The position numbers and the translations under genes were made by a program. This document shows, piece after piece, positions 8,776 to 40,635 of a DNA stretch of 64,000 nt; the stretch's first letter is position 1; the number at the start of each line of letters is the position of its first letter. The notes under the pieces were generated by a model. That model worked only from the letters and a program-made list of their open reading frames with translations. It was not told where the DNA came from and made no database searches. The stretch comes from Janibacter limosus (GTDB lineage Bacteria; Actinomycetota; Actinomycetes; Actinomycetales; Dermatophilaceae). The stretch is from assembly GCF_004295485.1 (NCBI RefSeq), contig NZ_CP036164.1, positions 1,736,001 through 1,800,000 on the forward strand, in the 5' to 3' direction.

Positions 8776-8815
8776 CCGGGCGAACCTTGTCGGTGGGCTT
8801 TCATATCGTGACGCC

Positions 8816-9724: not shown

Positions 9725-9805
9725 CGTGTCTGGACCACACTCACCCGAGACGTCCCCTCCCTTCGCTCCTATCTCGTCGACGTCGTGATCCCGGCTCTCG
9801 GCTGA
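9725..9805 (+). pseudogene. HepT (DUF86) toxin, 3'-end remnant
   Basis: The frame ending at TGA 9803-9805 reads RVWTTLTRDVPSLRSYLV and ends DVVIPALG. The intact HepT at 11879-12229 ends with RVWTTLTRDVPALRSYLV then EVVIPGLS, so 26 residues align with only four or so differences. The upstream nine tenths of the gene is gone. This is a relic of a second copy of the same toxin module about 2.1 kb upstream of the intact one. Confidence 0.75.
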
Positions 9806-9861
9806 GCTCGAACAGGGTCGGCACACACCGATCACACCTACATGCGCCGTACGCTGATGAG

Positions 9862-10050
9862 ATGGCCACCAAGCCCCGCCGATGGGAGACCCGCGTCTCG
9901 TCCGAGACCGACGAGCAGGTAGCTCGCGGCGACGTAACGCTGATGGACCTGGCCCTCTTCGATGCCCTCGTCGAGTCCCTGGAGACGCCGGACCCCGCGC
10001 CCGCTCTGCGTCGCAAGGCTCGGGCACCGCGCCAGACTCGACTCGACTGA
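9862..10050 (+). CDS. Small hypothetical protein, 62 aa
   Basis: ATG 9862 to TGA 10048-10050. The protein is charged (WETRVSSETDEQVARGDVTL, then a basic tail RRKARAPRQTRLD) and has no membrane segment or known motif. It could be a small antitoxin-like or regulatory protein, or chance coding potential between two gene remnants. No strong ribosome site is visible. Confidence 0.3.
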   Translation: MATKPRRWETRVSSETDEQVARGDVTLMDLALFDALVESLETPDPAPALRRKARAPRQTRLD

Positions 10051-24285: not shown

Positions 24286-25707
24286 CTACCGGTTGCGGCG
24301 CGCGATCGCCGTCGAGAGCACGGCGGCGAAGCCGGTCCACGCCGCGTAGGGCACCAGCGCCCAACCGCCCCGCCCACCGGCGGCCGCAGCGCGCCGTGCC
24401 AGGTCGGTCGAGCTGGCGGCGAGCACCCCGGCCTCGACCGCCGCGACGGCTGGCCGACGCACCCGCCAGAAGAGCACGCTCCACGCCGTGTTGAGCACGA
24501 GGTTGCCCCACAGTGCCCGTCGGTAGGCCGCTGCCTCGTCGGGTCTCCCCTCCCCTTCGAGCCGGGCGAGGGTGGCGACCGAGGTGGCGACGATGTCGGC
24601 GTACAGCGGTGTCCACACCAGGGGGAAGGCGAGCGGAGGCGGCTGCCACGACGGCAGGTCGAGCGACCGGTACCACCGGCTGTCGGGCTGGGTGGCCGCC
24701 GCGCCCAGCGCCGCGGCGCCCACCGTCGCCGCGGTGACCGTCAGGACGTCGCGGAGCACGTGGTCGGGCTGCGCGGTACGCATCGCCCGGCGCACCGCGT
24801 CGTCAAACCCGACGAGCCCGCCCTCCGGCAGCCCGACGTGGTCGTCGAGGTCCTGCTCCCGTCGCACGACCTCGTGGACCAAGCTGCCGACGAGCGGCTT
24901 GGCGACGTCGGCCTCGACGGGGGTGATCAGCCCGACCCAGTGGCTGGCCAGCCACGGCGTGAGCACGGGAACCCCGACGATGAGCCGTCGCCGCAGCCCG
25001 TTGACCGCGGCGAAGCGCTGGATCATCTGCTCGTAGGTCAGGACCTCGGGTCCGCCGATGTCGAAGGTGCGGTTGACGTCCTCGGGCAGCCGCGCCGCAC
25101 CCACGAGGTAGTGGAGCGCGTCGTCGACGGCAATCGGCTGGATCCGGTTGCGCAGCCACTGCGGGGCGACCATCGCCGGCAGCCGCTCGGTGAGGTAGCG
25201 CAGCATGTCGAAGGAGACCGACCCGTCACCCAGGACGACGGCGGCCTGCAGCACCGCGGCCGGCACGGGCGCGTCGAGCAGCACCTGCCCGACCTCCACG
25301 CGCGAGGCGAGGTGCACCGACAGGTCGGCGCCCTCGGGGTGCAACCCACCGAGGTACACGATGCGGCTGACCCCGGCGTCGGTCGCTGCCGTGGCGAAGC
25401 CCTCGGCCAGCTCACGGTCTCGCCGCGCGAGGTCGCCGCCGCCGTCCATCGAGTGCACGAGGTAGTAGGCGACGTCGGTGCCCGACAGGGCTCGCCGCAG
25501 GTCGTCGCCGGACGTCGCGTCGCCCTCGACGACCTCGACCCGATCGCCCCAGTCGTGCGCACCGAGCTTGTCGGCGGAGCGGGTGAGCACGCGCACCGTC
25601 CACCCCTCATCCAGGAGGCGGGGCACGAGCAGGCCACCGATGTAGCCGGTGGCCCCGGTGACGAGCACCGTGCCGGAGGCGAAGGGAGTGGCTGTGGACG
25701 TGGACAT
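24286..25707 (-). CDS. SDR (NAD(P)H-binding) domain fused to TspO/MBR membrane domain
   Basis: 473 residues from ATG 25707. The N-terminal 300 residues are an atypical SDR (VLVTGATGYIGGLLVPRLLD, VLTRSADKLG, YYLVHSM, IVYLGGLHPEG). The C-terminal 130 residues are a tryptophan-rich TspO/MBR domain: SLDLPSWQPPPLAFPLVWTP, then GNLVLNTAWSVLFW and LVPYAAWTGFAAVLS. TspO proteins bind porphyrins and react to light and oxidative stress. As last gene of an operon with photolyase and a light-type regulator upstream, a photooxidative-stress role is inferred. The fusion is unusual but both halves are clear. Confidence 0.85.
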   Translation of the reverse strand: MSTSTATPFASGTVLVTGATGYIGGLLVPRLLDEGWTVRVLTRSADKLGAHDWGDRVEVVEGDATSGDDLRRALSGTDVAYYLVHSMDGGGDLARRDRELAEGFATAATDAGVSRIVYLGGLHPEGADLSVHLASRVEVGQVLLDAPVPAAVLQAAVVLGDGSVSFDMLRYLTERLPAMVAPQWLRNRIQPIAVDDALHYLVGAARLPEDVNRTFDIGGPEVLTYEQMIQRFAAVNGLRRRLIVGVPVLTPWLASHWVGLITPVEADVAKPLVGSLVHEVVRREQDLDDHVGLPEGGLVGFDDAVRRAMRTAQPDHVLRDVLTVTAATVGAAALGAAATQPDSRWYRSLDLPSWQPPPLAFPLVWTPLYADIVATSVATLARLEGEGRPDEAAAYRRALWGNLVLNTAWSVLFWRVRRPAVAAVEAGVLAASSTDLARRAAAAGGRGGWALVPYAAWTGFAAVLSTAIARRNR

Positions 25708-25712
25708 GTCGG

Positions 25713-26435
25713 TCACCTCAGGAGGTCGAGGACGGGTGGCAGGAGGAAGAGCATCGAGCTGGACCAGATGACGTGCGTGATGATCGGTGCGAGGACGCCG
25801 CCGGTGACCCGGCGCTGCGCCCCCACGAGCACCCCGAGCAGGAGCGCGGCGAAGGTCAGCAGGAGGTTGCCGGTCGCGGCGGTGACGAGCACGTACACGA
25901 GCGTGGTGATCGCGATGGGTCGCCGCCGACCGACGGAGGCGAAGAGCGCCCCGCGGAAGAAGAGCTCCTCGCCGATGCCGGTGACGACGGTGATCGCCCA
26001 GACGATCGGCAGGGACCCGTAGCGCGCGTGGTCGAGCACCTCGTCGACGAGGCTCGCCAGCCACGGCACCCGGCCCATGACGAGGGCGCCGGCGAGGAAG
26101 ATCGCGACGGCGAGCAGCGCCAGCGCGATCGGCTGCACGACCGGTCGGGCATAGCCGGACTCGCGGGTGTGCGCCCAGCCGACGTGGAGGCGACCGGCGG
26201 CCAGGCCGCCGACGATCCACACCAGGGCCAGCGCGAGCCCGCCGAGGTAGAAGCTGTCGTCCCCCGGTGGGATGCGCAGGGTCACCGCGAGGACCAGGGT
26301 CCCGACGACGAGCGTCGCGACCGTGACCACCCGGCGGCGGCGCACCAGTGCGTCCGGCTCGTGGTGGTCCCTCGGGACCGGCGCCACGAGCGCGGCGGCG
26401 ACGAAGGAGCGCAGCTCCCTGACCGGGTGGATCAC
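25713..26435 (-). CDS. CPBP-family intramembrane glutamic metalloprotease
   Basis: 240 residues from GTG 26435, which overlaps the photolyase stop by four bases. Several hydrophobic helices are present. The family motifs are TGIGEELFFRGALF (EExxxR) and, near the end, VLAPIITHVIWSSSMLFL with the conserved histidine. CPBP proteases include Rce1-like and bacteriocin-immunity proteins; the substrate here is unknown. It is 5 bp upstream of the SDR-TspO gene. Confidence 0.85.
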   Translation of the reverse strand: MIHPVRELRSFVAAALVAPVPRDHHEPDALVRRRRVVTVATLVVGTLVLAVTLRIPPGDDSFYLGGLALALVWIVGGLAAGRLHVGWAHTRESGYARPVVQPIALALLAVAIFLAGALVMGRVPWLASLVDEVLDHARYGSLPIVWAITVVTGIGEELFFRGALFASVGRRRPIAITTLVYVLVTAATGNLLLTFAALLLGVLVGAQRRVTGGVLAPIITHVIWSSSMLFLLPPVLDLLR

Positions 26436-27823
26436 GTCTGCGCCCGCGCCATCTCGTACCGGTCCAGCGCCTCGCGGCGCTCCTCGGCGTGGTCGAGGAC
26501 GCGCTCGGGGTAGCCGTGGGCGGCGCCGTCGGGGTGGGTCCACGGTGTGTGGGCGGCCTTGCCCGGCAGGTGGGCGAGCTCGGGCACCCAGCGACGCACG
26601 TAGGCGCCGTCGGGGTCGAAGCGCTCCCCCTGGGTGATCGGGTTGAAGACCCGGAAGTACGGTGACGCGTCGGTCCCGGTGCCCGCCACCCACTGCCAGC
26701 CGTGGCTGTTGGAGGCCAGGTCGCCGTCGAGCAGGTGGTCGAGGAAGTGCCGCGCCCCGACCGGCCACCACACGTGCAGGTCCTTGGTGAGGAAGCTCGC
26801 GACGACCATCCGCACCCGGTTGTGCATGAACCCCTCGGCGAGCAGCTGGCGCATCCCCGCGTCGACGAAGGGGTAGCCGGTGCGCCCCTGCCGCCACGCC
26901 TCCACGAGCCGGTCGGTCTCCGGGCCCTCGTCGTAGGGCAGCGCAGCGAGGGCCTCCCGCAGGTCGGCCCACGCCGAGTCGGGGCGGTGCCACAGCACGT
27001 CGGCGTAGAACTCGCGCCACGCGAGCTCGGTGACGTAGCGGTGGGCGGCATCGCCGTCCGCCTGCGGGTGGGCCGCAATGTCCGCGAGCATCGTCCGGGG
27101 GTGGATCTCGCCGTGGGTGAGGTGGATCGACATCCGGCTCGTGACGTCGAGGTCGGGTCGGTCGCGGTCGGCGTCGTAGCCGTCGAGGTCGTCCTGGACG
27201 AAGCTGCGCCACCGCTCCAGCGCCGCCTCCTCCCCCGCGGGCCCGTCGACGGCGTCCTCGTCCGCGGCGGCGAGCACGCGCTCGAGGGCGTCCTCGCCGA
27301 CCTCGGCGAGCAGGTCGGCACCGTCCGTCAGCCACACGTCGTCGCCGACCCGGTCGGCGGGCGCCGGCCAGCCGTGGTCGCGCCAGGCCCGGGCGAAGGG
27401 GGTGAAGACCTTGTACGGCGTGCCCTCACCCGTGAGGACCAGCCCGGGACCGACCGCGTAGGGGCTGCCGGTCGTGACGAGCTCCGCGCCCTGCTCCCGC
27501 AGCCGCCCGGCGACGTCCTCGTCCCGCTCCCGTCCCGCGGGCGTCGTGTCCCGCGTGACGTGCACCCGCTCGGCGCCGACTGCCGCGGCCGCCTGCGGCA
27601 CGAGGTCCACCGGGTCGCCGCAGCGGACGACCAGCGCTCCGCCGGTCGCCTCGTGCAGGGCCACGATCGAGCGCAGCATCCGGACGGCCGGCGGGCGACG
27701 GTCGGTGAGCAGCCGTGGCTCCACGACGACGAAGGGGAGGACCTCCCCTTCGTCGGCTGCGGCCAGGAGCGCCGGGTGGTCCGACAGTCGCAGGTCCCGG
27801 CGGAACCACATGAGGGCGGTCAC
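26432..27823 (-). CDS. phr: Deoxyribodipyrimidine photolyase (class I cryptochrome/photolyase family)
   Basis: 463 residues from GTG 27823, giving fMet-TALMWFRRDLRLSDHP, the usual photolyase start; the GTG overlaps the SDR stop by four bases. The antenna domain covers about 1-130. The FAD domain has RMSIHLTHGEIHPRT, WREFYADVLWHRP, GYPFVDAGMRQLLAEGFMHN and RVRMVVASFLTKDLHVWW. The enzyme repairs UV pyrimidine dimers with blue light. It is in the operon facing the CarH-like regulator. Confidence 0.93.
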   Translation of the reverse strand: MTALMWFRRDLRLSDHPALLAAADEGEVLPFVVVEPRLLTDRRPPAVRMLRSIVALHEATGGALVVRCGDPVDLVPQAAAAVGAERVHVTRDTTPAGRERDEDVAGRLREQGAELVTTGSPYAVGPGLVLTGEGTPYKVFTPFARAWRDHGWPAPADRVGDDVWLTDGADLLAEVGEDALERVLAAADEDAVDGPAGEEAALERWRSFVQDDLDGYDADRDRPDLDVTSRMSIHLTHGEIHPRTMLADIAAHPQADGDAAHRYVTELAWREFYADVLWHRPDSAWADLREALAALPYDEGPETDRLVEAWRQGRTGYPFVDAGMRQLLAEGFMHNRVRMVVASFLTKDLHVWWPVGARHFLDHLLDGDLASNSHGWQWVAGTGTDASPYFRVFNPITQGERFDPDGAYVRRWVPELAHLPGKAAHTPWTHPDGAAHGYPERVLDHAEERREALDRYEMARAQT

Positions 27824-28575
27824 GAGGACGAGCGTGCCACGCGGGCGGTGATCGCCGCCCACAGCCGCACCGGCAGCACACGGGCGACCTTCATCGTCAC
27901 GGCCATCCGGCGGGGGAAGACGATCTCGACCTTGCCACCCTCGAGCCCGTCGGCGATCTCGGTGGCCGCTTCCTCCGGCTCGATGATGAAGGGCATGGGG
28001 AAGGAGTTGGTCTCGGTCATGTCGGTGCGCACGAAGCCCGGGCAGACCGTCGTGACCTGCACGTCCTTGGTCGACAAGGATGCGCGCATCGACTCCAGCA
28101 GGTTGATCTGCGCCGCCTTGGTCGCGGCATAGGCCTCTCCCCCGGACAGGCCGCGGTAGCCGGCGACCGAGGCGATCCCGACGAGGTGCCCGCTGCGGTG
28201 CGAGACCATCTGCGGCAGGGTCGCGGCGATGACGTTGTTGAGCCCCAGGAGGTTGACCTCGACATGCGTCACGAACTCGTCGGCCTGCCAGTCGGTGGCG
28301 GTGTAGGTGTGCCAGTACCCGGCGCACCAGATCACCATGTCGATACCCCCGATCGCCGTGCGCACCCGCTCGGCAGCGGCCCAGCACGCGCTCCGGTCGG
28401 TGACGTCGAGCGGGACCGTGACCATGCGTCCGCCCGAGACCTCGTCGAGCCGCTCCGCCCGGCGGGCGCTGATCGCCACGATCGCGCCACGGCGCTGCAG
28501 CTCCTCGGCCAGTGCCGCACCGATGCCGCTGGAGGCGCCGACCAGCCAGATACGTTGTCCGACAAGGCTGCTCAT
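27820..28575 (-). CDS. Short-chain dehydrogenase/reductase
   Basis: 251 residues from ATG 28575. Classical SDR: nucleotide motif WLVGASSGIGAALAEELQ, VIWCAGYWH, and the catalytic Ser ... YxxxK in GIASVAGYRGLSGGEAYAAT followed by K. Four-base overlaps join it to the fatty-acid methyltransferase upstream and the photolyase downstream. In comparable clusters an SDR accompanies the methyltransferase; its substrate is not known. Confidence 0.88.
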   Translation of the reverse strand: MSSLVGQRIWLVGASSGIGAALAEELQRRGAIVAISARRAERLDEVSGGRMVTVPLDVTDRSACWAAAERVRTAIGGIDMVIWCAGYWHTYTATDWQADEFVTHVEVNLLGLNNVIAATLPQMVSHRSGHLVGIASVAGYRGLSGGEAYAATKAAQINLLESMRASLSTKDVQVTTVCPGFVRTDMTETNSFPMPFIIEPEEAATEIADGLEGGKVEIVFPRRMAVTMKVARVLPVRLWAAITARVARSSS

Positions 28576-29849
28576 GCTGCCTCCACCCGCTCGAGACGGA
28601 TCTGCGCCACGTCGATGTAGTCGGCGGCGAAGCCGGCCTCGCAGTACGCGAGGTAGAACTCCCACTTGCGGCGGAAGGTCTCGTCGAACCCGCTCGCAGC
28701 GATCGTGGGCCACTCCTGGATGAAGGTGCGGCGCCAGCGGCGCAGGGTCTCGGCGTAGTCGCGGCCGAAGCGGTGCGTCGCGGTCACCCGCAGCGAGGTG
28801 TGCTCGGTGGTGGTCTCCTCGATCGCCTCGCTGGAGGGGATCAGCCCGCCGGGGAAGATGTGCTTCTGGATCCACCCGTAGGAGCGGCGCGTCGCCAGGT
28901 AGCGATCGTGCGACATGAGGATCGACTGGATCGCGGCGATGCCCCCGGGCGCGAGCAGGTCGTCGATCGCGCGGAAGTAGGTCGGCCAGTACTCCTCGCC
29001 GACGGCCTCGATCATCTCGACACTGACGATGGCGTCGAACTGCCCGCTCACCTCGCGGTAGTCCTGCAGCCGCACCTCGACCCGAGCCGCGAGACCCGGC
29101 TCGTCGACGTCGGCCGCGGCGATGCGCTCACGGGCCAGGGCGGCCTGCTCGTGCGAGAGGGTGATCGAGGTGACGGTGGCGCCGCGGCGGGCGGCGGCGA
29201 TGGCCAGCGAGCCCCACCCGGTGCCGATCTCCAGCACCCGGCTGCCGGCCGTGACATCGGCGGCGTCGAGGACCGCATCGATCTTGGCGTGCTGGGCCTC
29301 GACGAGGGTCTGCTCCGCCAGCGGACGAGAGCGGTCGAAGAGCGCGGAGCTGTAGCTGAGGGTCTCGTCGAGGAAGGCGGTGAAGAGGTCATTGCTCAGG
29401 TCGTAGTGCGCCTCGATGTTCTTGCGCGAGCCGAGCAGCGTGTTGCGCGTGCCGCTCGGGATGCGCCGGTCGACAACGCGCTTCATGCGCGCGAGTCCCG
29501 AGGGGACGAGGGTGGTGATCCGCTGGGCGAAGGGCAGCAGCGCGTCCGCCAGGTCGGTCCCGGGAGCCGCCTCCCAGTCCCCGGCCATGTAGCCCTCCCC
29601 CATGCCGATCTTGGGGTGGTGCGCCATCCGCTCGAAGAGTGCCGTCGGGTGCACGATCTGCAAGGTCGGGGCGTCGGCCTCCCGACCGCCACCCAGGGTG
29701 GTCCCGTCGGGCATCGTCACCCGCACCGGCGCCCGGTCGAGCACCGCGGCGAGGATCGGTCGGGCCAGACGGGCCCGCAGGCACCACGGGCGAAGGGCGG
29801 GTCGGCGCAGGCAGATCGGTTGGTCGAGGGTGGGGACAGAAGCGGTCAT
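28572..29849 (-). CDS. Cyclopropane-fatty-acyl-phospholipid synthase-family methyltransferase
   Basis: 425 residues from ATG 29849, preceded by AGGACCTCC. SAM motif VLEIGTGWGSLAIAAARRGA lies at about 205-224, with NIEAHYDLSNDLFTAFLDET and VEMIEAVGEEYWPTYF as CFA-synthase signatures. It modifies unsaturated acyl chains in membrane lipids. Together with the DUF1365 and FAD oxidoreductase genes it forms a trio known near light-responsive MerR regulators and, in Rhodobacter sphaeroides, linked to singlet-oxygen response and furan fatty acids. Whether the product here is cyclopropane, methyl-branched or furan lipid is open. Confidence 0.9.
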   Translation of the reverse strand: MTASVPTLDQPICLRRPALRPWCLRARLARPILAAVLDRAPVRVTMPDGTTLGGGREADAPTLQIVHPTALFERMAHHPKIGMGEGYMAGDWEAAPGTDLADALLPFAQRITTLVPSGLARMKRVVDRRIPSGTRNTLLGSRKNIEAHYDLSNDLFTAFLDETLSYSSALFDRSRPLAEQTLVEAQHAKIDAVLDAADVTAGSRVLEIGTGWGSLAIAAARRGATVTSITLSHEQAALARERIAAADVDEPGLAARVEVRLQDYREVSGQFDAIVSVEMIEAVGEEYWPTYFRAIDDLLAPGGIAAIQSILMSHDRYLATRRSYGWIQKHIFPGGLIPSSEAIEETTTEHTSLRVTATHRFGRDYAETLRRWRRTFIQEWPTIAASGFDETFRRKWEFYLAYCEAGFAADYIDVAQIRLERVEAA

Positions 29850-30610
29850 CGGAGGTCCTCCTGCGAGTGCGGGGTACGAGGCTGGATGGGGAGTCGGCGC
29901 GTCCACAGCCAGATGCCGTGGACGCGGATCAGGGCGCTGACGCGCCAGGTCATGAGCAGGTGGCGGGCGGCGGTGCGCACGACGGTGGCGTCGGTCGCTG
30001 CGCGTGGGACACCGCTCGTCGTCGCGGTGAGGATCCGCTCGCCGTCGCGATCCAGGCCGACGGTCACGACGACGCGGTCACGCTCCAGGCGCAGGCTCAC
30101 CGCGTACTCGCCGCTGGTGTCGTTGAAGGGCGAGACGTAGAAGGCCTTGTCGGTGCGTGCCCGCCCGCTCTCGTCGACCTCGAGCAGGTACGCGTGCCGC
30201 TCGCCGTAGGTGTTGTGCACCTCGAAGACGCAGGCCCGCAGGCGCCCGTCCGGCGCGAGGCACCAGTAGACGGTCAGCGGGTCGAAGACGTGGCCCAGGA
30301 CCCGCGCGTTGGCGAGCATGACGACCCGGTCGTCGGCAGCGAGCGTGATGTCCCGGTGGGCGAGGAATCGCGTCAGGTCACCGCGGATGCCGCCACCCTG
30401 CTCGCCCCCGTCGAGGTGGTCACGCGCTTCGATCCGGGTGAGCGCGCGCAGCGGCCACCGGTGGCGTGGCAGGTCGTCGACGTCGACGAGCCACTGGTAC
30501 TGGCGGTTGGCGAAGGCGTGCTCGACCGGCGTGCGGCGGGTGTGGCTGACGGTGCCGACGACGAGGCTCGGCAGGGTCGGCAGCTCGGTGAGCGTGGGCG
30601 CGGTGGTCAC
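29846..30610 (-). CDS. DUF1365 protein
   Basis: 254 residues from GTG 30610, overlapping the FAD oxidoreductase stop by four bases (GTG 30613 is in frame too). DUF1365 signatures: GTVSHTRRTPVEHAFANRQY, LGHVFDPLTVYWCLAPDG, VFEVHNTYGERHAYLL and KAFYVSPFNDTSGEY. The family nearly always sits between an FAD amine-oxidase-like gene and a CFA-synthase-like gene, as here, and is presumed to act in the same lipid modification. Confidence 0.92.
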   Translation of the reverse strand: MTTAPTLTELPTLPSLVVGTVSHTRRTPVEHAFANRQYQWLVDVDDLPRHRWPLRALTRIEARDHLDGGEQGGGIRGDLTRFLAHRDITLAADDRVVMLANARVLGHVFDPLTVYWCLAPDGRLRACVFEVHNTYGERHAYLLEVDESGRARTDKAFYVSPFNDTSGEYAVSLRLERDRVVVTVGLDRDGERILTATTSGVPRAATDATVVRTAARHLLMTWRVSALIRVHGIWLWTRRLPIQPRTPHSQEDLR

Positions 30611-31893
30611 CACGTCGCCCCGAGTCGCTGCGCCGCCTCGACGCCCGAGCGGCACCCGTCCTCGTGGAACCCCCAGCCGAGGTGCGCGCCGGCGAAGGCC
30701 AGCCGGTCGCCGCCGGCGGTGCGCAGCCGGGCGGCCGCTGCGACGGCCTCCCGGGTGAAGACCGGGTGCGCGTAGTCCATCCGCGCGACCACGTCCGCCT
30801 CGTCGAAGGGGGTCGGGGAGTTGAGCGTGACGAGCAGCTGGTCGCCGTCCTCGTCGAAGCCCTGCAGCCGGTTCATCCAGTAGCTGACCCGCGCCCGGCT
30901 GGCCCCGCCGCAGCTCTCGCTGCGGTAGTTCCACGAGGCCTTGGCCCGCGTCGCGCTCGGCAGGTGGGTGGTGTCGCGGTGGAGGACGGTCGCGTTGCGG
31001 GAGTAACGGATTGCGCCGAGGTCCTCCTTCTCCTGCGGGGTCGCGTCGGCGAGCAGCGCCAGCGCCTGGTCGGCGTGGGTGGCGATGACGACCTTGTCGA
31101 AGGGGGTGACCCCGGCGGCGGTGCGCACGTCGACCCCGTCGGGGCGCCGGGTCACGGACGTGACGGCCGCGCTGGTGCGCACGTCACGCAGCCGGGACGC
31201 GAGGGCGTCGACATAGGTCCGGGACCCGCCGACGACGGTGCGCCAGGTCGGGGACCCGCTGATGCTGAGCATGCCGTGGTGCTCGAGGAAGGCGAAGAGG
31301 TGCCGGGCCGGGTAGTCGAGGGAGTCCTCGTCGCCGGAGGACCACACGCACGAGACGAGCGGGAGCGCGAAGTGGGCGATGAAGTGCTCCGAGAAGCTGC
31401 CGCGCTGCAGGAACTCGCCCCAGGTCGGGTCGTCGCCCGAGCCGCTGCCGCCGGTGTCGGCCAGGACCGCCCGGGCGGCCTTGTGGAAGCGCGGGATCTC
31501 CAGCAGCATCCGCAGGAAGCGCGGGTCGGCGAGCCGCCGCGGCTGAGCGAGGACCGCGCCGAGCCCGGCGCCGCCCGCCCACGAGAGACCGCACCCGTCG
31601 CAGGTGATCGACATGCTCATCTCGGTCGGGCGGGTGGGCACGTCGAGCTCGCGGAAGAGGCGCAGCAGGTGGGGGTAGGTGCGCTCGTTGTGGACGATGA
31701 AGCCGCTGTCGACGCGCACCTCACCGCCGCCGCTCGTGGGGACGGTGTGGGTGTGGGCGTGCCCGCCGAGCCGGTCGTCGGCCTCGAAGAGGGTGACGTC
31801 GTGGGTCTGCGACAGGACATACGCCGCAGTCAAACCGGAGACGCCCGCGCCGATGACGGCGACGCTCGGGCGGTCGGGGTGGTGCTCGGTCAC
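30607..31893 (-). CDS. FAD-dependent amine-oxidase-like oxidoreductase
   Basis: 428 residues from ATG 31893. The dinucleotide-binding start is VAVIGAGVSGLTAAYVLSQT with FEADDRLGGHAHTH, then VDSGFIVHNERTYPHLLRLF. These match the NAD(P)/FAD protoporphyrinogen/amine-oxidase-like group that precedes DUF1365 and CFA-synthase-like genes. It is first in the seven-gene minus-strand operon and faces the regulator gene across a 139-bp intergenic region with likely operator repeats. Confidence 0.92.
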   Translation of the reverse strand: MTEHHPDRPSVAVIGAGVSGLTAAYVLSQTHDVTLFEADDRLGGHAHTHTVPTSGGGEVRVDSGFIVHNERTYPHLLRLFRELDVPTRPTEMSMSITCDGCGLSWAGGAGLGAVLAQPRRLADPRFLRMLLEIPRFHKAARAVLADTGGSGSGDDPTWGEFLQRGSFSEHFIAHFALPLVSCVWSSGDEDSLDYPARHLFAFLEHHGMLSISGSPTWRTVVGGSRTYVDALASRLRDVRTSAAVTSVTRRPDGVDVRTAAGVTPFDKVVIATHADQALALLADATPQEKEDLGAIRYSRNATVLHRDTTHLPSATRAKASWNYRSESCGGASRARVSYWMNRLQGFDEDGDQLLVTLNSPTPFDEADVVARMDYAHPVFTREAVAAAARLRTAGGDRLAFAGAHLGWGFHEDGCRSGVEAAQRLGATW

Positions 31894-31958
31894 GACGGAT
31901 GCTCCTGCTGGGAGAGGAAGGGGGGCACGATGGGTTCGGAGCCGACCGCGCCAAAGGA

Positions 31959-32020
31959 TTGTTCAACCTTTGTCCAAGACGCTAGAGTCACCTTGACCGC
32001 GCTGTCAAATGTTTGTTCAA
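31959..32020. promoter_or_regulatory. Divergent promoter region with CarH-like 11-bp operator repeats
   Basis: TTGTTCAA at 31959 and TTGTCCAA at 31970 are exactly 11 bp apart, the repeat period of CarH operators. A third TTGTTCAA lies at 32013 with a weaker copy (CTGTCAAA) 11 bp before it. On the plus strand, TTGTTC (31959-31964) and TAGAGT (31983-31988) could be -35 and -10 of the regulator operon. On the minus strand a perfect TTGACA (complement of 32003-32008) could be the -35 for the oxidoreductase operon, with the first repeat pair near its start point. Repression of both directions in the dark is inferred. Confidence 0.55.
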
Positions 32021-32032
32021 GGATGTGCAGCC

Positions 32033-32470
32033 ATGAAGATCACCCGCACCATCAACGTCGCTGATACCCCACCGTCGGCGGTCTACGCCTATCTCGCCGA
32101 CTTCACGACGAGCACGCAGTGGGACCCGGGGACCCTGGAGACGACCCTCGTGGAGGGCGATGGCGGGATCGGCAGCCGCTACCGCAACCGCTCGGTCTTC
32201 CGCGGTCGGCAGACCGAGCTCGTCTACGAGACGATCGACCTGCAGCCGGACCGCCTCGTCGTCATGCGAGGTGAGAACAAGAGCGTCATCGCCCGGGACA
32301 CCATGTCGATCAGCCGCGACGAGCGGGGCACCGGTACCGTGCTCGTCTACGAGGCGGACTTCACCTTCAAGGGACTCGCCAAGCTGGCCACCCCCTTCCT
32401 CCGCGGCCAGCTGACCCGGCTGGGGGACGAGGCGGAGGCGGCTCTCGCCCGCGAGCTGCCGCACGTGTAG
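32033..32470 (+). CDS. SRPBCC (START/polyketide-cyclase-like) family protein
   Basis: 145 residues from ATG 32033. ITRTINVADTPPSAVYAYLA ... DFTTSTQWDPGT is the standard N-terminus of the hydrophobic-pocket SRPBCC fold. It probably binds a lipid-like ligand. It is cotranscribed with the CarH-like regulator 22 bp downstream and diverges from the lipid-modifying operon, which fits a role in handling fatty acids or membrane stress. Confidence 0.82.
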   Translation: MKITRTINVADTPPSAVYAYLADFTTSTQWDPGTLETTLVEGDGGIGSRYRNRSVFRGRQTELVYETIDLQPDRLVVMRGENKSVIARDTMSISRDERGTGTVLVYEADFTFKGLAKLATPFLRGQLTRLGDEAEAALARELPHV

Positions 32471-32492
32471 AGGAGATCGAGGACCGCCCCTG

Positions 32493-33368
32493 ATGTACAC
32501 GATCAAACGCGCCGCCGAGCTGACCGGCGTCCCCGCCGCCACGCTGCGCGCCTGGGAGCGCCGCTACGACCTCGTCGAGCCGCGGCGCACCGACGCCGGC
32601 TACCGCCTCTACGACGACGAGGCCGTCGCCCGGGTTACCCGGATGGCGACGCTCATCGCCGACGGCTGGAGCGCGAGCACCGCTGCGGCAGAGGTGCATC
32701 GCCTCCTCGGTCCCGACAGCGCGACACTCCCCCCTTCGCCGGCGACGGATGGCCCGACCGCCACCGCCGAGCTCGTCGCGGCCGCCGCCGCGATGGACCC
32801 GGCCGAGGTCTCCCGGGTCCTGGACGAGCAGCTCGCCCGCACCCCCTTCGAGTCGGTCGTCGACGACTGGCTCATGCCGACGCTCGAGGAGGTCGGGCAG
32901 GCCTGGGAGGACGGGCGCGTCTCGATCGCCGGCGAGCACCTCGTCGCGCACGCGGTACTGCGCCGGCTCTCTGCTGCCTTCGACGCCGCCCCGGGCCGTC
33001 CCGGCGGTCCGCGGGTCCTCGTCGGACTGCCCGCCGGGGTGCACCACGAGCTGGGCATCTTCGCCTTCGCCGTCGTCCTGCGCCGACACGGGGTGGACGT
33101 GGTCTACCTCGGGCCTGACCTGCCCGCGCCTGCCTGGCGTGACGCGCTCGAGACCCACGGCGCGAGCTGCGCGGTGCTCGGGGTGCCGCGACGACGCGAC
33201 GCCCGGCCCGCCCGAGAGGTCGTCGAGGCGCTGCACGACGTCGACGACACCCTGACGATCCTCGTCGGAGGAGGGCACCAGGACGAGCTCGACGGCACGC
33301 GCACCACGCGTCTGGGGCACCTCATCGGCCCGGCCGCCGCCGAGGTCGCCGCCCTGCTGCCTGCGTAG
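32493..33368 (+). CDS. MerR-type regulator with B12-binding domain, CarH/LitR-like photoreceptor
   Basis: 291 residues from ATG 32493. Residues 1-70 are a MerR winged helix (YTIKRAAELTGVPAATLRAW). Residues 105-165 form the four-helix bundle with the CarH signature Wx9EH: Trp138, Glu148, His149. A cobalamin-binding Rossmann domain follows; His185 in VHHELG takes the place of the lower cobalt ligand, though the usual acidic residue two before it is valine. The residue after Trp138 is Glu, not the His that caps cobalt in Thermus CarH. Such proteins bind adenosylcobalamin, repress in the dark and release DNA in light. Its neighbourhood fits this. Confidence 0.85.
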   Translation: MYTIKRAAELTGVPAATLRAWERRYDLVEPRRTDAGYRLYDDEAVARVTRMATLIADGWSASTAAAEVHRLLGPDSATLPPSPATDGPTATAELVAAAAAMDPAEVSRVLDEQLARTPFESVVDDWLMPTLEEVGQAWEDGRVSIAGEHLVAHAVLRRLSAAFDAAPGRPGGPRVLVGLPAGVHHELGIFAFAVVLRRHGVDVVYLGPDLPAPAWRDALETHGASCAVLGVPRRRDARPAREVVEALHDVDDTLTILVGGGHQDELDGTRTTRLGHLIGPAAAEVAALLPA

Positions 33369-33380: not shown

Positions 33381-34058
33381 ATGAGCACCCTGCAGACGCT
33401 CGACCGCGGCCTCGAGGCGATGGACATCGTCTCCCGTCGCACGGGCGGCATCTCGCCCGCGGCACTCGCCGACGAGCTGGGCGTTCACCGGGCCGGCGCC
33501 TACCGCATCCTCGCGACCCTGGAGCAGCGCCACCTCGTCACGAAGGGCGAAGACGGCCGCTACCGTCTCGGCAGCGGCGCGCTGGTCGTCGCCGGCCGCT
33601 TCATGAGCCAATATCGTTCTGCCGCACAACCGGTCGTCCAGGACCTCGCCGACCGCACCGGGCACACGGCCTTCGTGGCCATCGCCGACCGCGAGGAGTC
33701 CGTGGCCATCGCAGTCGCCGAGCCCTCCACCCGCGGTCCCATCGGTGTCAGCTACCAGGTCGGCACGCGGCACCCCCTCGAGCACGGTGCCGACGGGCTG
33801 GCCATCCTCGCCCTGCGCCCCGAGGCCCCCGATGACATCGAGGCGGTGCGCACCGCCCGCGAGCGGGGCTTCGGGCTCTCCCGCGGCGAGATCCAGCCGG
33901 GCACCGCAGGCCTCGCCGTGGCGACCGGTGCCGCCTCCGACACCGATGTCGAGAGCTCCATCGGACTCATCACGCTCGGCCACCCCGACGACCTCGACGT
34001 CGAGCGCCTGCTACCGCTGCTGCACGAGTCCCGCGAGCGCATCGCCCGCCTGTACTGA
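33381..34058 (+). CDS. IclR-family transcriptional regulator
   Basis: 225 residues from ATG 33381, 12 bp after the CarH-like gene. The winged helix is LDRGLEAMDIVSRRTGGISP ... ALADELGVHRAGAYRILATL; the ligand-binding domain follows (GHTAFVAIADREESVAIAV, HPLEHGADGLAILAL). IclR proteins commonly control aromatic-acid catabolism, and the homogentisate genes lie just downstream, so it is a candidate regulator of those genes through the palindrome at 38412-38426. Confidence 0.85.
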   Translation: MSTLQTLDRGLEAMDIVSRRTGGISPAALADELGVHRAGAYRILATLEQRHLVTKGEDGRYRLGSGALVVAGRFMSQYRSAAQPVVQDLADRTGHTAFVAIADREESVAIAVAEPSTRGPIGVSYQVGTRHPLEHGADGLAILALRPEAPDDIEAVRTARERGFGLSRGEIQPGTAGLAVATGAASDTDVESSIGLITLGHPDDLDVERLLPLLHESRERIARLY

Positions 34059-34109
34059 GGCTCCGCCGGTGGCCGCGCGGCGGGCCGGGCCGGGCGATAG
34101 CGTGGCCGG

Positions 34110-35074
34110 ATGGCCAAGGTCGACGGAGCCCCAGCGTTCACGCTCAACCAGATCGCCGTCTTCGCAGCCGTCGCTGACGCGGGGACGATCGTCGGGGCCG
34201 CCGAGCAGCTGCACGCCTCCCCCTCCGCCGTGTCGGCCGCCCTCACGGAGCTGGAGCGGACGCTGCACGCTCAGCTGGTCCACCGGCTGCGGGCGAAGGG
34301 GGTCCGCCTCACCCCCACGGGCGAGCTGCTCCTGCCCCGAGCGCGACTGCTGCTCCACCAGGCCACCGAGCTCGAGGCCGACGCCCACGGCACCGACGCC
34401 GGAGTCTCGGGGCGGGTGCGCCTGGGCTGCTCGCCGTGGTTCTCCCCAATGTCCTGCCCGGGCTCCTGTCGGGGTTCCACGACCTGCACCCCGACGCCAC
34501 CATCGAGGTCCTCGAGGCCGCACCCGACCACCTGACCGCCGCCCTCGAGGAGGGCGCTCTCGACCTCGCGATCACCTACGACCTCGACCTGCCCGACGGC
34601 TGGCAGCGGGCCCCCTTCGCCAGTCTCGTGCCTCACGTGATCCTGCCGCGCGACCACCCGCTCGCCGACGGTCCGGACGCGATCGACCTCGGCGACCTCG
34701 CGGGCGACCCCATGGTCCTGCTCGACGTCGCCCCGAGCGCGAAGCACGCCCACGACTGCTGCCGTGCAGCGGGATTCGTGCCCGAGGTGGCCCTGCGAGC
34801 CCGCACGTACGAGACCGTCCGCGCCTTCGTCGGGCGCGGCTACGGGTGGACCCTGCTCGTCTCGCGTGCCGCCAGCCTCGAGACCGCGGAGGGACGCGAG
34901 GTCGTCGTCAAGCAGATCGCCGCACCGGCCCTGCCCACGGTGCAGGTCTGCGTGCTCTGGCACCCTCGCGCGATGCTCAACCGGGCCTCGCGCACCTTCG
35001 TCAGCCACACGCTGGCGCACGGGAGCTCGCTCGTCGGTGGGCCGCTCGACCCTGCCGAACCACAGGTTTCTTGA
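34110..35074 (+). pseudogene. LysR-family regulator with a single frameshift
   Basis: The first part (34110 to about 34430) has the LysR helix-turn-helix FTLNQIAVFAAVADAGTIVG ... LHASPSAVSAALTELERTL. The second, in another frame from about 34430 to 35074, is the substrate domain (VLPNVLPGLLSGFHDLHPDA ... GALDLAITYDLDLPDGWQ ... RAFVGRGYGWTLL). One lost base near 34428-34432 explains the break: GGC TGC CTC GCC GTG would restore the frame. It is either a recent pseudogene or a sequencing error. It would have regulated the MHS transporter operon. Confidence 0.8.
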
Positions 35075-35093
35075 GGTTCCAGCCTCAAAACCT
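35065..35093. promoter_or_regulatory. Inverted repeat before the aromatic-acid operon
   Basis: TTGAGG-TTCCAG-CCTCAA (35071-35088) is flanked by near-complementary AGGTT and AACCT, giving a hairpin about 29 bp long followed by CCGCTTTT. It overlaps the LysR stop and lies 75-100 bp before the transporter start. It could be a terminator of the regulator gene or an operator of the operon. Confidence 0.45.
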
Positions 35094-35166
35094 CCGCTTT
35101 TCAGGACAGTGGTCATCCGCCACTCTTCTCGGGTCTGACAACGGCGTCGAACCCGAAAGGCTTCTC

Positions 35167-36522
35167 ATGAGCACCACCACCGTCCCCACCGTGGCCGCAG
35201 GACCACCCGCGAGCAGGGCCCACGCCCGTCGCGCCGTGCTCGGCAGCTTCGTCGGCACCGCCATCGAGTGGTACGACTTCTTCATCTACGGCACGGCCGC
35301 CGCCCTGGTGCTCGGCCCGCTCTTCTTCCCGGGCGAGTCCTCGGTCGCCGGCACGATGGCCGCCTTCGGCACCTACGCCGTCGGCTTCGTCGCCCGCCCC
35401 GTCGGCGGCGTCGTCATGGGCCACTTCGGCGACCGGGTCGGGCGCAAGTCGATGCTCGTCATCGCCATGCTCCTCATGGGTACCGCCACCGTCGCCGTCG
35501 GGCTGCTGCCCACCTACGCGCAGATCGGCGTCTGGGCCCCGATCCTGCTCGTGCTGTGCCGCTTCATCCAGGGTCTGGGTGTCGGCGGCGAGTGGGGCGG
35601 AGCCGTCCTCATGGCCACCGAGTACGCGCCGAAGGGCAAGCGCGGCCTCTACGGCGTCGCGCCCCAGCTCGGCGTCCCGGTCGGCGTGCTGCTCGCCAAC
35701 CTGACCTTCTTCACCATCACCAGCGTGACGACCACGGAGCAGTTCCTCGCCTGGGGCTGGCGCCTGCCCTTCCTCTTCAGCTTCCTCCTCATCGGTGCCG
35801 CCATGTGGATCCGCCTGGGGGTCATGGAGAGCCCGGAGTTCCGGGCCGTCGCCGCGAAGAACGAGGTGCGTCAGGCACCGATCGTCGAGGTCCTGTCGAA
35901 GAGCTGGCGCAAGGTGCTCCTCGCCGCCGGCAGCTTCATCGCCACCAACGGTGTGGCCAACGTCTTCATGGTCTTCCTCCTCTCCTACGGCACCGCCGAG
36001 CTCGGCTTCTCCCGCGACACGATGCTCTTCGCGCTCATCGCCTCCGTCCCCCTGTGGATGCTCGGCATGGCGTTGTCCGCGCACTACTCGGACGTCCTCG
36101 GTCGCCGCACCGTCTACGTCGGCGCCGCCGTCGGCCTGCTCGTCGTCAGTGCGGTCTTCTTCCCGATGGTCGACTCCGGGAGCCTGCCCGTGCTCGTCGT
36201 CGCCGAGATGCTCATGGCCTTCTTCCTCGGCCTGACCGTCGGCCCGCAGTCAGCGGTCTTCGCCGAGCTCTTCCCCGCCGCCGTCCGCTTCAGCGGGGCC
36301 TCGCTCGCCTATCAGGTCGGCGCGATCCTCGGTGGCGGCCTCGCGCCGATCATCGCCACCTGGCTCTTCGACAGCTTCGGCACGAGCGCTGCCGTCACCG
36401 GCTACTGCGTCGCCGCGAGCCTGATCAGCCTCACCTGCAGCGCCGTGCTCCTGCGCCGCCCCCACGAGGCCGAGCCCGACACCCTGACCACCATCACCGC
36501 GTCCGAGGTCGCGGCATCATGA
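35167..36522 (+). CDS. MHS-family (MFS) organic-acid:proton symporter
   Basis: 451 residues from ATG 35167. The MHS signature is SFVGTAIEWYDFFIYGTAAA with GHFGDRVGRKSMLVIAMLLM between helices 2 and 3 and GEWGGAVLMATEYAPKGKRG in the middle. Twelve hydrophobic segments are visible. It probably imports the aromatic acid (for example a hydroxyphenylacetate or hydroxybenzoate) degraded by the following genes, with which it overlaps by four bases. Confidence 0.9.
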   Translation: MSTTTVPTVAAGPPASRAHARRAVLGSFVGTAIEWYDFFIYGTAAALVLGPLFFPGESSVAGTMAAFGTYAVGFVARPVGGVVMGHFGDRVGRKSMLVIAMLLMGTATVAVGLLPTYAQIGVWAPILLVLCRFIQGLGVGGEWGGAVLMATEYAPKGKRGLYGVAPQLGVPVGVLLANLTFFTITSVTTTEQFLAWGWRLPFLFSFLLIGAAMWIRLGVMESPEFRAVAAKNEVRQAPIVEVLSKSWRKVLLAAGSFIATNGVANVFMVFLLSYGTAELGFSRDTMLFALIASVPLWMLGMALSAHYSDVLGRRTVYVGAAVGLLVVSAVFFPMVDSGSLPVLVVAEMLMAFFLGLTVGPQSAVFAELFPAAVRFSGASLAYQVGAILGGGLAPIIATWLFDSFGTSAAVTGYCVAASLISLTCSAVLLRRPHEAEPDTLTTITASEVAAS

Positions 36523-38408: not shown

Positions 38409-38426
38409 AATGTGCGCTGAGCGCAC
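38382..38426 (+). promoter_or_regulatory. hmgA promoter with palindromic operator
   Basis: TTGACC (38382-38387) and TAGAAT (38406-38411) with an 18-bp spacer form a sigma-70-like promoter. The perfect palindrome GTGCGCT-G-AGCGCAC (38412-38426) begins directly after the -10 box, an ideal repressor position. hmgA starts at 38480 with GAAGGA upstream. The nearby IclR protein is the best candidate for binding. Confidence 0.6.
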
Positions 38427-38479
38427 GATCGAGAGCATATATCGCACACTCTCCCGCACAACGAGGTGAAGGAACACTC

Positions 38480-40560: not shown

Positions 40561-40635
40561 CCCCCCTTCGTGGCTCGTCCCTCGCACCTCAGGACGACGC
40601 CTTCGTCCACCCCTGACCTGAGAGGTCCCCACTCC

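What the first reader, a model, noticed from the sequence alone, without database searches (positions are those of the whole stretch)
24286..33368. CarH/LitR-type light regulator facing a seven-gene lipid, photolyase and TspO operon
The MerR/B12 protein keeps Wx9EH (W138, E148, H149) and a histidine in the lower-ligand position, and faces FAD oxidoreductase-DUF1365-CFA synthase-SDR-photolyase-CPBP-SDR/TspO, all joined by tiny overlaps or gaps. CarH/LitR regulators next to photolyase and cfa-DUF1365-oxidoreductase genes are known in pseudomonads, and the CFA-type methyltransferase group is linked to singlet-oxygen defence in Rhodobacter. Adding an intramembrane protease and an SDR-TspO fusion is new to me and suggests a photooxidative membrane-repair module with porphyrin sensing.
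Basis: partly seen in the sequence, partly recalled or inferred. Interest (0 to 1): 0.75.

Follow-up and report, generated by a model that had tools for sequence, protein, structure and literature searches.

The report
Light-switched furan fatty acid operon
A soil bacterium appears to place genes for an unusual protective membrane fat, DNA repair and related functions under a vitamin B12 light switch and, at the same start site, under a stress sigma factor whose natural trigger is still unknown, which suggests light damage as one candidate trigger.

Summary
The window is Janibacter (close to J. limosus). A CarH/LitR-type MerR-B12 regulator faces seven tightly packed genes. The first three match the furan fatty acid enzymes UfaD, UfaO (DUF1365) and UfaM in family and gene order, so the CFA-like gene is probably not a cyclopropane synthase.

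Photolyase, SDR and TspO near ufa or CarH genes are known or seen elsewhere. The SDR-TspO fusion is common. CPBP is the least expected partner.

The new part is the wiring. The 139-bp intergenic region holds 11-bp direct repeats like CarH operators; the pattern matches exactly once in the 3.5-Mb genome. It also holds a SigK-type ECF promoter aimed at ufaD. The genome has sigK-rskA 1.2 Mb away. The relaxed SigK motif lies before ufaD in 35 of 60 genomes with SigK and 0 of 8 without. sigK sits beside ufa only where CarH does not (0 of 34 against 11 of 33).

Best reading: a photo-oxidative defence operon of the SigK regulon, gated by an AdoCbl light repressor. All functional steps are inferred. 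Novelty: new variant of a known kind.

The parts
30607..31893 (-). UfaD-like FAD oxidoreductase (predicted methyl-fatty-acyl desaturase), first gene of the operon
   Evidence: PF01593; followed by DUF1365 and CMAS genes in 67 of 67 family loci; 39-42% identical to the FAD gene of Paracoccus, Rhizobium and Pseudoalteromonas ufa clusters
29846..30613 (-). UfaO-like DUF1365 protein (predicted furan-forming oxygenase)
   Evidence: PF07103, 214.7 bits against a cut-off of 25; one match in the genome
28572..29849 (-). UfaM-like SAM methyltransferase of the CMAS family
   Evidence: PF02353; has Ser and Gln where E. coli Cfa has C139 and H266, keeps E239 and Y317
27820..28575 (-). short-chain dehydrogenase
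   Evidence: PF00106; 40% identical to the SDR of the Paracoccus ufa cluster, 33% to that of Pseudoalteromonas
26432..27823 (-). DNA photolyase
   Evidence: PF00875 and PF03441; best NCBIfam matches are photolyases, below their cut-offs
25713..26435 (-). CPBP (Rce1-like) intramembrane protease family protein
   Evidence: PF02517; in 33 of 33 family loci that have it, the NAD(P)-binding (with or without TspO) gene is present too
24286..25707 (-). NAD(P)-binding (NmrA-like) domain fused to TspO, last gene of the operon
   Evidence: PF13460 residues 18-123, PF03073 residues 326-468; W51/W138 of B. cereus TspO kept; one TspO match in the genome
32033..32470 (+). SRPBCC (Polyketide_cyc2) protein, first gene of the regulator's unit; the ORF opens at 32009 but ATG 32033 behind AAGGA is the likelier start
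   Evidence: PF10604; start reasoning
32493..33368 (+). CarH/LitR-type MerR-B12 photoreceptor regulator
   Evidence: PF13411, PF02607, PF02310; best PDB matches are Thermus CarH; light signature complete; only match in a search of the genome with this protein
31959..31976 (+). predicted CarH operator O1: two copies of an 11-bp direct repeat (TTGTTCAACCT TTGTCCA)
   Evidence: only exact match to TTGTYNAANNTTTGTYNA in the 3.5-Mb genome (pattern written from this site); 11-bp spacing test in relatives
32002..32019 (+). predicted CarH operator O2: second pair of 11-bp repeats in the leader of the SRPBCC-regulator unit
   Evidence: only one-mismatch match to the same pattern in the genome
31934..31961 (-). 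SigK-type ECF promoter toward ufaD: CAATCC (31961-31956), 16-bp spacer, CCGAAC (31939-31934)
   Evidence: one of 6 matches to CMATCCN15-16YCGAAC in the genome (control 1); two others lie before the fasciclin and molybdopterin-oxidoreductase genes next to sigK
31959..31988 (+). predicted housekeeping promoter of the SRPBCC-regulator unit: TTGTTC, 18 bp, TAGAGT; its first hexamer lies in O1
   Evidence: read from sequence; the consensus scan did not report it (0 found), so it is weak; TTGTCC-N17-TAGAGT in L055, L062 and L068

Best explanation
This is a photo-oxidative defence operon. In the dark, AdoCbl-bound oligomers of the CarH-type regulator sit on 11-bp repeats in the shared intergenic region and block two promoters: the one for SRPBCC and the regulator itself, and the SigK-type promoter of ufaD, whose -35 element overlaps the first repeat by 3 bp. 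Light breaks the Co-C bond and the repressor falls off. Full expression then also needs the ECF sigma factor SigK, released from RskA by a signal that is probably photo-oxidative. The operon makes methylated furan fatty acids (UfaM methylates an unsaturated phospholipid acyl chain, UfaD desaturates it, UfaO inserts O2), which trap reactive oxygen in the membrane. It also makes a photolyase for UV damage, an SDR, a CPBP membrane protease, and a TspO fused to a NAD(P)-binding domain that may remove or sense photosensitising porphyrins.

Shown by sequence: gene content and order, light-signature residues, repeats, SigK-type site, a SigK-RskA pair in the genome, and co-occurrence statistics. Inferred: every binding, light, enzymatic and sigma-factor step.
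For: Regulator: best PDB matches are Thermus CarH. W, EH, lower His and GxxxP are kept in 35 of 35 sequences; the G of GxxH in 32 of 35. A Cob_adeno_trans (AdoCbl-forming) gene is in the genome.

Operator: the published CarH repeat is 11 bp, nAnnTnnACAn (PMC8156234, passages). Its reverse-complement core TGTnnA, paired at 11 bp, occurs around the ufaD start (600 bp upstream, 60 bp inside) in 23 of 35 regulator-positive and 2 of 33 regulator-negative sequences (shuffle means 0.09 and 0.11). Other spacings from 7 to 16 bp give at most 3 of 35.

SigK: the strict promoter motif is in 19 of 35 and 9 of 33 sequences (shuffle means 0.03 and 0.04). The relaxed motif, which includes the window, is in 35 of 60 genomes with SigK and 0 of 8 without (Fisher 0.002; by genus 18 of 30 against 0 of 8, p 0.003). 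The window's genome has sigK over its NCBIfam cut-off and rskA. SigK sites are reported as highly conserved in Actinobacteria, and M. tuberculosis sigK as autoregulated from the Rv0449c promoter (PMC7509140, passages); that Rv0449c is a UfaD homologue is recalled, not compared here.

Chemistry: same D-O-M order as R. palustris RPA2571-2569, whose products make furan fatty acids (PMC7380195, passages).

Light in other Actinobacteria: M. kansasii induces phrB-tspO and, weakly, two fasciclins with putative SigK sites (PMC9861118). R. erythropolis raises two CFA-family proteins 22- and 44-fold at 40 h (PMC9416670), and an ufa cluster on a plasmid of another R. erythropolis strain has two CMAS genes and a SigK-like site.
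Against: No experiment has been done on this organism. The window's SigK-type site fails the strict pattern: its spacer is 16 instead of 15 bp and the base before CAATCC is A. In a Janibacter relative (L053) the -10 is TCGAAC. My first, looser SigK pattern gave 8 matches in the genome against 6 in its backwards control; only the pattern narrowed afterwards separates (6 against 1), and two of those 6 matches have no such neighbour that I assigned. The consensus scan found no sigma-70 promoter in 31800-32100. 12 of 35 regulator-positive sequences lack the repeat pair, and a stricter form (TTGTYnA twice) is in only 6 of 35. The TtCarH H132 equivalent is never His (0 of 35), so the light-state bis-His complex cannot form the same way. 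Orthology to R. sphaeroides UfaD/O/M was not tested directly, and UfaO homologues across phyla are only 25-30% identical. The Gln at the Cfa H266 position is not exclusive to the UfaM copies: 34 of 40 second CMAS copies have it too.

In M. kansasii only 14 genes changed after 20 min of light; neither sigK nor any cyclopropane-synthase or methyltransferase gene is named among them, dipZ (also with a putative SigK site) did not change, and the fasciclins rose only 6- and 3-fold from low counts. The R. erythropolis paper does not mention SigK, and its two proteins were not matched by sequence to ufaM. Motif patterns were written after seeing part of the loci; the SigK-presence and spacing tests were run afterwards. 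Two of the eight genomes without SigK are under 90% complete.
Confidence: 0.53

Rival explanations
1. The regulator controls only its own unit (SRPBCC and itself). The ufa operon is plain SigK regulon and needs no light switch; the two units are neighbours because both serve light stress.
For: The repeats overlap the regulator's own promoter more than the ufaD promoter. In several relatives the SigK -35 lies some bases away from the repeats. ufa with adjacent sigK and no CarH exists in 11 of 67 family loci.
Against: In the window the repeat and the SigK -35 overlap. Six of the eight genomes without SigK have CarH and ufa together, so something other than SigK must drive ufa there. CarH is linked to photolyase, CPBP and the NAD(P)-binding gene.
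Confidence: 0.25
2. It is a plain CarH light operon; the GTTCGG...GGATTG element in the window is a decayed leftover of a SigK promoter and no longer works in Janibacter.
For: The window misses the strict pattern and has a 16-bp spacer; a Janibacter relative (L053) has TCGAAC.
Against: The site before the genome's own molybdopterin-oxidoreductase gene beside sigK also has a 16-bp spacer. The site is one of only 6 genome matches; of the other five, two lie before genes beside sigK and one before a secreted-protein gene.
Confidence: 0.2
3. The CMAS gene is a true cyclopropane synthase and the operon makes cyclopropane lipids for stress.
For: Family PF02353; best PDB match is E. coli Cfa; V. cholerae and R. 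erythropolis papers call the light-induced relatives cyclopropane synthases.
Against: Ser and Gln replace Cys139 and His266 of E. coli Cfa (catalytic roles recalled). UfaD and UfaO genes stand directly before it in 67 of 67 family loci (UfaO by choice of loci, UfaD not), and a DUF1365 protein puts O2 into a furan (PMC7380195).
Confidence: 0.1
4. The regulator senses cobalamin status, not light.
For: There are no light data for this organism.
Against: Complete published light signature and a photolyase in the operon.
Confidence: 0.1

Closest known systems
Class II LitR regions of Pseudomonas mendocina and P. putida (phrB, SDR, FAD oxidoreductase, ufaM, cryB, folE; PMC9758184, passages)
   Same: MerR-type LitR regulator near phrB, SDR, FAD oxidoreductase and ufaM; light-inducible genes; repressor bound in the dark.
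   Different: Class II LitR works with a LOV protein; here the AdoCbl signature is complete, the repeats are 11-bp TGTnnA type instead of TGTACA-N12-TGTACA, and there is CPBP, an SDR-TspO fusion and a SigK-type promoter.
RpoE-ChrR singlet-oxygen regulon of Rhodobacter sphaeroides (rpoE, chrR, RSP1091-1087, RSP2144 ufaM/cfaS, phrA, fasciclin RSP1409; PMC7074977 and PMC7380195, passages)
   Same: UfaD, UfaO, UfaM, an SDR and a photolyase; furan fatty acids; an ECF sigma factor.
   Different: No ChrR over cut-off in the window's genome or in 36 relatives searched (12 of the 37 have weak matches); SigK-RskA and CarH appear to take its place.
SigK-RskA regulon of mycobacteria (Rv0449c promoter, mpt70/mpt83; PMC7509140, passages)
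   Same: SigK-type promoter before the UfaD-type gene; sigK-rskA-fasciclin set in the genome.
   Different: Here sigK-rskA is about 1.2 Mb away from ufa and CarH sits next to ufa instead.
Thermus thermophilus HB27 carH locus on pTT27 (L151)
   Same: carH, phr, and an SDR 50% identical to the SDR half of the fusion; a gene annotated as TspO at the edge of the same stretch.
   Different: Holds carotenoid genes; its SDR is fused to DUF2867, not TspO; no ufa trio in the stretch. The window's genome has no phytoene synthase match.
Rhizobium tropici CIAT 899 pRtrCIAT899a and Paracoccus zhejiangensis pPZ02 ufa clusters
   Same: UfaD-UfaO-UfaM in the same order; TspO in Rhizobium; SDR, fasciclin and an RskA_C anti-sigma factor in Paracoccus.
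   Different: No CarH annotated in the fetched stretches; ECF sigma factors with ChrR or RskA-type anti-sigma factors lie beside them.

Membership tests
CarH/LitR AdoCbl photoreceptor family | MerR DNA-binding domain plus B12-binding_2 and B12-binding domains | tested here: met
   PF13411, PF02607, PF02310
CarH/LitR AdoCbl photoreceptor family | Light signature GxxW, EH, GxxH, GxxxP (includes Wx9EH) | tested here: met
   G135/W138, E148/H149, G182/H185, G207/P211
CarH/LitR AdoCbl photoreceptor family | NCBIfam CarH equivalog cut-off (NF052513) | tested here: not met
   131.2 bits against a cut-off of 400, but best match of all NCBIfam models; so a CarH-type protein, not the curated equivalog
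CarH/LitR AdoCbl photoreceptor family | Operator of 11-bp direct repeats near the target promoter | tested here: met
   sequence only, binding not shown; two repeats per site here, three or four in known operators
CarH/LitR AdoCbl photoreceptor family | AdoCbl binding, dark oligomer, light-triggered release from DNA | not testable with these tools
   needs purified protein
CarH/LitR AdoCbl photoreceptor family | TtCarH H132 (light-state ligand, recalled; not a family-wide requirement as far as I recall) | tested here: not met
   Glu139; His in 0 of 35
Furan fatty acid (Ufa) pathway | UfaD-type FAD oxidoreductase, UfaO DUF1365 and UfaM-type methyltransferase encoded together | tested here: met
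   same order as R. palustris RPA2571-2569
Furan fatty acid (Ufa) pathway | Direct orthology to R. sphaeroides RSP1091, RSP1090, RSP2144 | not tested
   those sequences were not fetched; Paracoccus, Rhizobium and Pseudoalteromonas cluster members used instead
Furan fatty acid (Ufa) pathway | Furan fatty acid in lipids | not testable with these tools
   needs lipid analysis
Cyclopropane fatty acid synthase (E. coli Cfa type) | Bicarbonate-site residues C139, E239, H266, Y317 (roles recalled) | tested here: not met
   Ser, Glu, Gln, Tyr
SigK (ECF) regulon | SigK and RskA encoded in the genome | tested here: met
   SigK 269.8 bits over cut-off 226; RskA_C 75.5 bits over 29.4
SigK (ECF) regulon | SigK-type promoter before ufaD | tested here: inconclusive
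   relaxed motif met with 16-bp spacer, strict motif not met; motif absent in all 8 genomes without SigK
TspO/MBR | TspO domain over cut-off and the two Trp recalled as catalytic in B. cereus TspO | tested here: met
   98.2 bits over 24; both Trp aligned

The most novel reading that the evidence does not exclude
SigK-RskA is the actinobacterial counterpart of the RpoE-ChrR singlet-oxygen response. Its unknown natural signal is photo-oxidative membrane stress, and its core output is furan fatty acids. In one branch of the Micrococcales an AdoCbl photoreceptor was added on the same promoter, so that the operon needs both a light report (repressor off) and a damage report (SigK on). sigK is no longer beside ufa wherever the photoreceptor is.
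Probability: 0.28. Interest if true: 0.8.

Novelty: new variant of a known kind. Interest (0 to 1): 0.6.

Why it matters
B12-based CarH/LitR regulators are known mainly from the control of carotenoids (PMC6739363, passages); here the genome has no phytoene synthase match and the neighbouring target is a furan fatty acid operon. The signal that activates SigK is stated to be unknown (PMC7509140, passage; PMC9861118, passage). A SigK-type promoter in front of a light-gated furan fatty acid operon gives a direct, cheap test of one answer in a soil bacterium. It would also suggest a pathway for the DUF1365-linked genes that are spread patchily over Actinobacteria (35 of 296 genomes sampled from the phylum, 70 of 119 in the window's family).

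Tried and rejected
Cyclopropane synthesis as the job of the CMAS gene: thought unlikely on Cfa residues and constant company of UfaD.

Novelty of TspO or photolyase in such clusters: rejected. Novelty of the SDR-TspO fusion itself: rejected; 118 of the 120 listed relatives have the TspO domain. Among 79 loci with named hosts 18 have the full-length fusion; of these 17 have CPBP, 13 a CarH-type MerR, 12 UfaO and UfaM, and 8 the photolyase within the fetched stretch.

'Furan fatty acids replace carotenoids where CarH controls ufa': rejected as a general rule. Phytoene synthase is found in 17 of 34 regulator-positive and 18 of 33 regulator-negative genomes, although the window's own genome has no match.

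ChrR as hidden regulator: no match over cut-off in 37 genomes searched (37 of the 68 I had); 12 have weak matches. The weak match in the window's genome (542357-542578) is RskA itself.

A sigma-70 promoter by consensus scan of 31800-32100: none found. A looser SigK pattern: 8 matches against 6 in the control, not informative.

The tryptophan-rich protein annotated in the Paracoccus cluster has no Pfam match, so I do not count it as TspO. The secreted protein behind another SigK-type site (L108) has no Pfam match. Of the 6 matches, the ones at 937462 and 2779421 were not assigned to a regulon gene.

Statistics: Fisher values ignore shared ancestry except where a genus-level count is given. Two of 69 non-own DUF1365 places (short contig ends) were not fetched. 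Of 35 genomes with DUF1365, the window's own and one already fetched were left out, giving 33 loci. SigK presence was taken at E 1e-45 (59 of 67; 58 over the curated cut-off). No structure was predicted.

Full report
WHAT IS THERE. The window is position 1,736,001-1,800,000 of a one-contig 3.55-Mb genome. Its SDR-TspO protein is 98% identical to one named Janibacter limosus, and the J. limosus type strain (L157) has the nine genes from the last operon gene to the regulator at 88-100% protein identity. An SRPBCC gene (ATG 32033 to 32470) was missed; it lies between the two units and heads the regulator's unit. An IclR gene follows the regulator after 12 bp; in the family loci it is found only in those of the window's genus.

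THE REGULATOR. It has a MerR domain and both B12 domains, and its best PDB matches are Thermus CarH. A study of light-responsive B12 domains gives the signature GxxW, EH, GxxH, GxxxP (PMC11796333, passages). The window has all of it. Over the window and 34 family homologues, W, EH, the lower histidine and GxxxP are kept in 35 of 35, and the G of GxxH in 32 of 35. The residue that follows the Trp, His132 in TtCarH, is never His (0 of 35), so the light state must differ in detail. The score for the curated CarH equivalog is below its cut-off (131.2 against 400), so I call it CarH-type. A search with the protein finds no second copy in the genome; a Cob_adeno_trans gene is there; B12 synthesis was not checked.

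THE CHEMISTRY. In Rhodobacter sphaeroides UfaM methylates an unsaturated acyl chain, UfaD desaturates it and UfaO, a DUF1365 protein, inserts O2 to make a furan; the R. palustris proteins RPA2569 (UfaM), RPA2570 (UfaO) and RPA2571 (UfaD) do the same (PMC7380195, passages). The window has the same three families in the same order. DUF1365 is found in 70 of 119 genomes sampled from the family. I fetched the surroundings of 67 of the 69 non-own places, and UfaD, UfaO and UfaM stand in this order on one strand in 67 of 67. In the whole phylum DUF1365 is rarer, 35 of 296, and the trio is in 29 of 33 stretches fetched. The UfaM-like protein has Ser and Gln where E. coli Cfa has C139 and H266 (catalytic roles recalled). 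At the second place Gln is found in 101 of 101 first copies, but also in 34 of 40 second CMAS copies, so it argues against canonical Cfa better than it identifies UfaM. I did not fetch the R. sphaeroides proteins; comparison was with Paracoccus, Rhizobium and Pseudoalteromonas clusters (39-42% for UfaD, 25-30% for UfaO, 34-44% for UfaM).

THE PASSENGERS. Photolyase, CPBP and the NAD(P)-binding gene go with the regulator in the family: 25 of 34 against 4 of 33, 25 of 34 against 8 of 33, and 26 of 34 against 8 of 33. CPBP never occurs in these loci without the NAD(P)-binding gene (33 of 33). The TspO half is fused in 19 of 67 loci; 15 have the NAD(P)-binding half without the fused TspO. TspO beside ufa genes also occurs in Rhizobium tropici, with an ECF sigma factor and ChrR. 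In Thermus thermophilus the carH locus itself has phr next to the phytoene synthase gene, and an SDR 50% identical to the SDR half but fused to DUF2867. In Mycobacterium kansasii light raises a phrB-tspO-mmpL2 cluster 27- to 32-fold (PMC9861118, passages and table). So TspO in a light module is not new; the constant CPBP partner is the least explained. The TspO half keeps both Trp that I recall as needed for porphyrin photodegradation in B. cereus.

THE OPERATOR. CarH binds 11-bp direct repeats, nAnnTnnACAn, three or four in a row, over the target promoter (PMC8156234, passages). In the window 31959-31976 and 32002-32019 each hold two such repeats (TTGTTCAACCT-TTGTCCA; CTGTCAAATGT-TTGTTCA). 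In the genome the first is the only exact match to the pattern and the second the only one-mismatch match; four more matches have two mismatches, against two in the control. In relatives, paired TGTnnA at 11 bp lies near the ufaD start in 23 of 35 regulator-positive and 2 of 33 regulator-negative sequences, shuffle means 0.09 and 0.11; a stricter form is in 6 of 35 and 0 of 33. Spacings of 7-10 and 12-16 bp give 0-3 of 35.

THE SIGMA FACTOR. Reading toward ufaD, many relatives share CCATCC or CCAATCC, mostly 15 bp, CCGAAC, which I recognised (recalled) as the SigK type. A held paper says that SigK sites are highly conserved in Actinobacteria and that M. tuberculosis sigK is autoregulated from the Rv0449c promoter (PMC7509140, passages); I recall Rv0449c as a UfaD homologue and did not compare it. 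The window's genome has sigK over the NCBIfam cut-off, then rskA, a fasciclin and a molybdopterin oxidoreductase at about 541,800-545,800, with motif sites before the last two. A first, loose pattern was uninformative (8 matches, control 6). The narrower one has 6 matches (control 1), one of them the ufaD promoter, 31934-31961, with a 16-bp spacer as in the site before the oxidoreductase. The strict motif is before ufaD in 19 of 35 and 9 of 33 sequences, shuffle means 0.03 and 0.04; the relaxed one in 24 of 35 and 11 of 33. I then asked which genomes have SigK: 59 of 67 plus the window's. The relaxed motif is in 35 of 60 genomes with SigK and 0 of 8 without (Fisher 0.002; by genus 18 of 30 against 0 of 8, 0.003), and the strict one in 28 of 60 and 0 of 8 (0.017). 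Two of the eight are 84-89% complete. This test was set up after the motif, so it is the best evidence that the motif is a SigK promoter. The window passes only the relaxed form.

REGULATOR EXCHANGE. In 11 of 33 regulator-negative family loci sigK-rskA lies in the fetched stretch with ufa; in 0 of 34 regulator-positive ones. In 8 of 33 loci from the wider phylum sigK-rskA is in the stretch with the DUF1365 gene, and in two of these (genomes of 8.9 and 9.9 Mb) a CarH-type MerR with the full signature is there as well. So the exclusion seen in the family does not hold phylum-wide. Paracoccus has an RskA_C-type anti-sigma factor and a fasciclin beside its ufa trio; Rhizobium and Pseudoalteromonas have ChrR. 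The R. capsulatus photo-oxidative sigma factor resembles SigK (34%) more than R. sphaeroides RpoE (24%) (PMC7074977, passage). No ChrR over cut-off is in 37 genomes of the window's family that I searched. One effector set thus sits with ChrR, RskA or CarH in different lineages, and in Janibacter and its relatives apparently answers to two of them.

LINK TO LIGHT IN OTHER ACTINOBACTERIA. M. kansasii light-induced genes include two fasciclins with putative SigK sites; the paper calls the signals for SigK obscure. Against this, the whole response at 20 min is 14 genes, no sigK, cyclopropane-synthase or methyltransferase gene is named among them, dipZ did not change, and the fasciclins rose 6- and 3-fold from low counts. 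In Rhodococcus erythropolis JCM3201 light raises two CFA-family proteins with consecutive accessions 22- and 44-fold at 40 h; the paper does not mention SigK (PMC9416670, passages). An ufa cluster on a plasmid of R. erythropolis KB1 has two adjacent CMAS genes and a perfect SigK-type site upstream. That the two proteins are that pair is my inference.

VERDICT. A CarH-type photoreceptor gating a furan fatty acid operon that also carries a SigK-type promoter is the best reading (0.53 as a whole; about 0.85 for the CarH-type light regulator, 0.75 for furan fatty acids, 0.7 for the SigK promoter, 0.4 for true two-input gating). I found no held paper that describes this combination in the listings. 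The field's subscription literature was not searchable, and two papers on SigK and singlet-oxygen regulons were not held.

Noticed in passing
window 34110-34535 and 34436-35074 (+): A LysR-type regulator reads in two frames: the helix-turn-helix part in one (by eye), the substrate-binding domain (PF03466) in another; either a frameshift in this strain or a sequencing error.
   Followed up: partly
window 33381-41883 (+): IclR regulator, transporter and FAD hydroxylase (by eye), homogentisate-dioxygenase-like and fumarylacetoacetase-like genes: an aromatic-acid catabolic cluster directly behind the light regulator.
   Followed up: partly
window 1-10000: Lower G+C (0.58-0.65 against mostly 0.67-0.76 later) with a type I restriction methylase-like ORF and an IS3-type integrase-like ORF (names read from the sequence): looks like a genomic island.
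   Followed up: no
G000:C1 about 541800-545800 (L107): sigK-rskA-fasciclin-molybdopterin oxidoreductase cluster with two SigK-type sites; another site precedes a secreted-protein gene without Pfam match at about 3326300 (L108).
   Followed up: yes
L132, L137: Loci from large genomes of the same class hold ufa, sigK-rskA, a second ECF sigma factor, a CarH-type MerR and a photolyase within 18.5 kb, perhaps the Streptomyces lit region (recalled).
   Followed up: partly
L151 18013-19458: The Thermus carH locus has the same SDR type fused to DUF2867; the fusion partner differs (DUF2867 or TspO) while the SDR stays.
   Followed up: partly
L171 (Knoellia subterranea), L174 (Enemella dayhoffiae): SDR-TspO fusion in one stretch with a CarH-type MerR but without ufa genes: the fusion seems to belong to the light regulator as much as to the lipid genes.
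   Followed up: no
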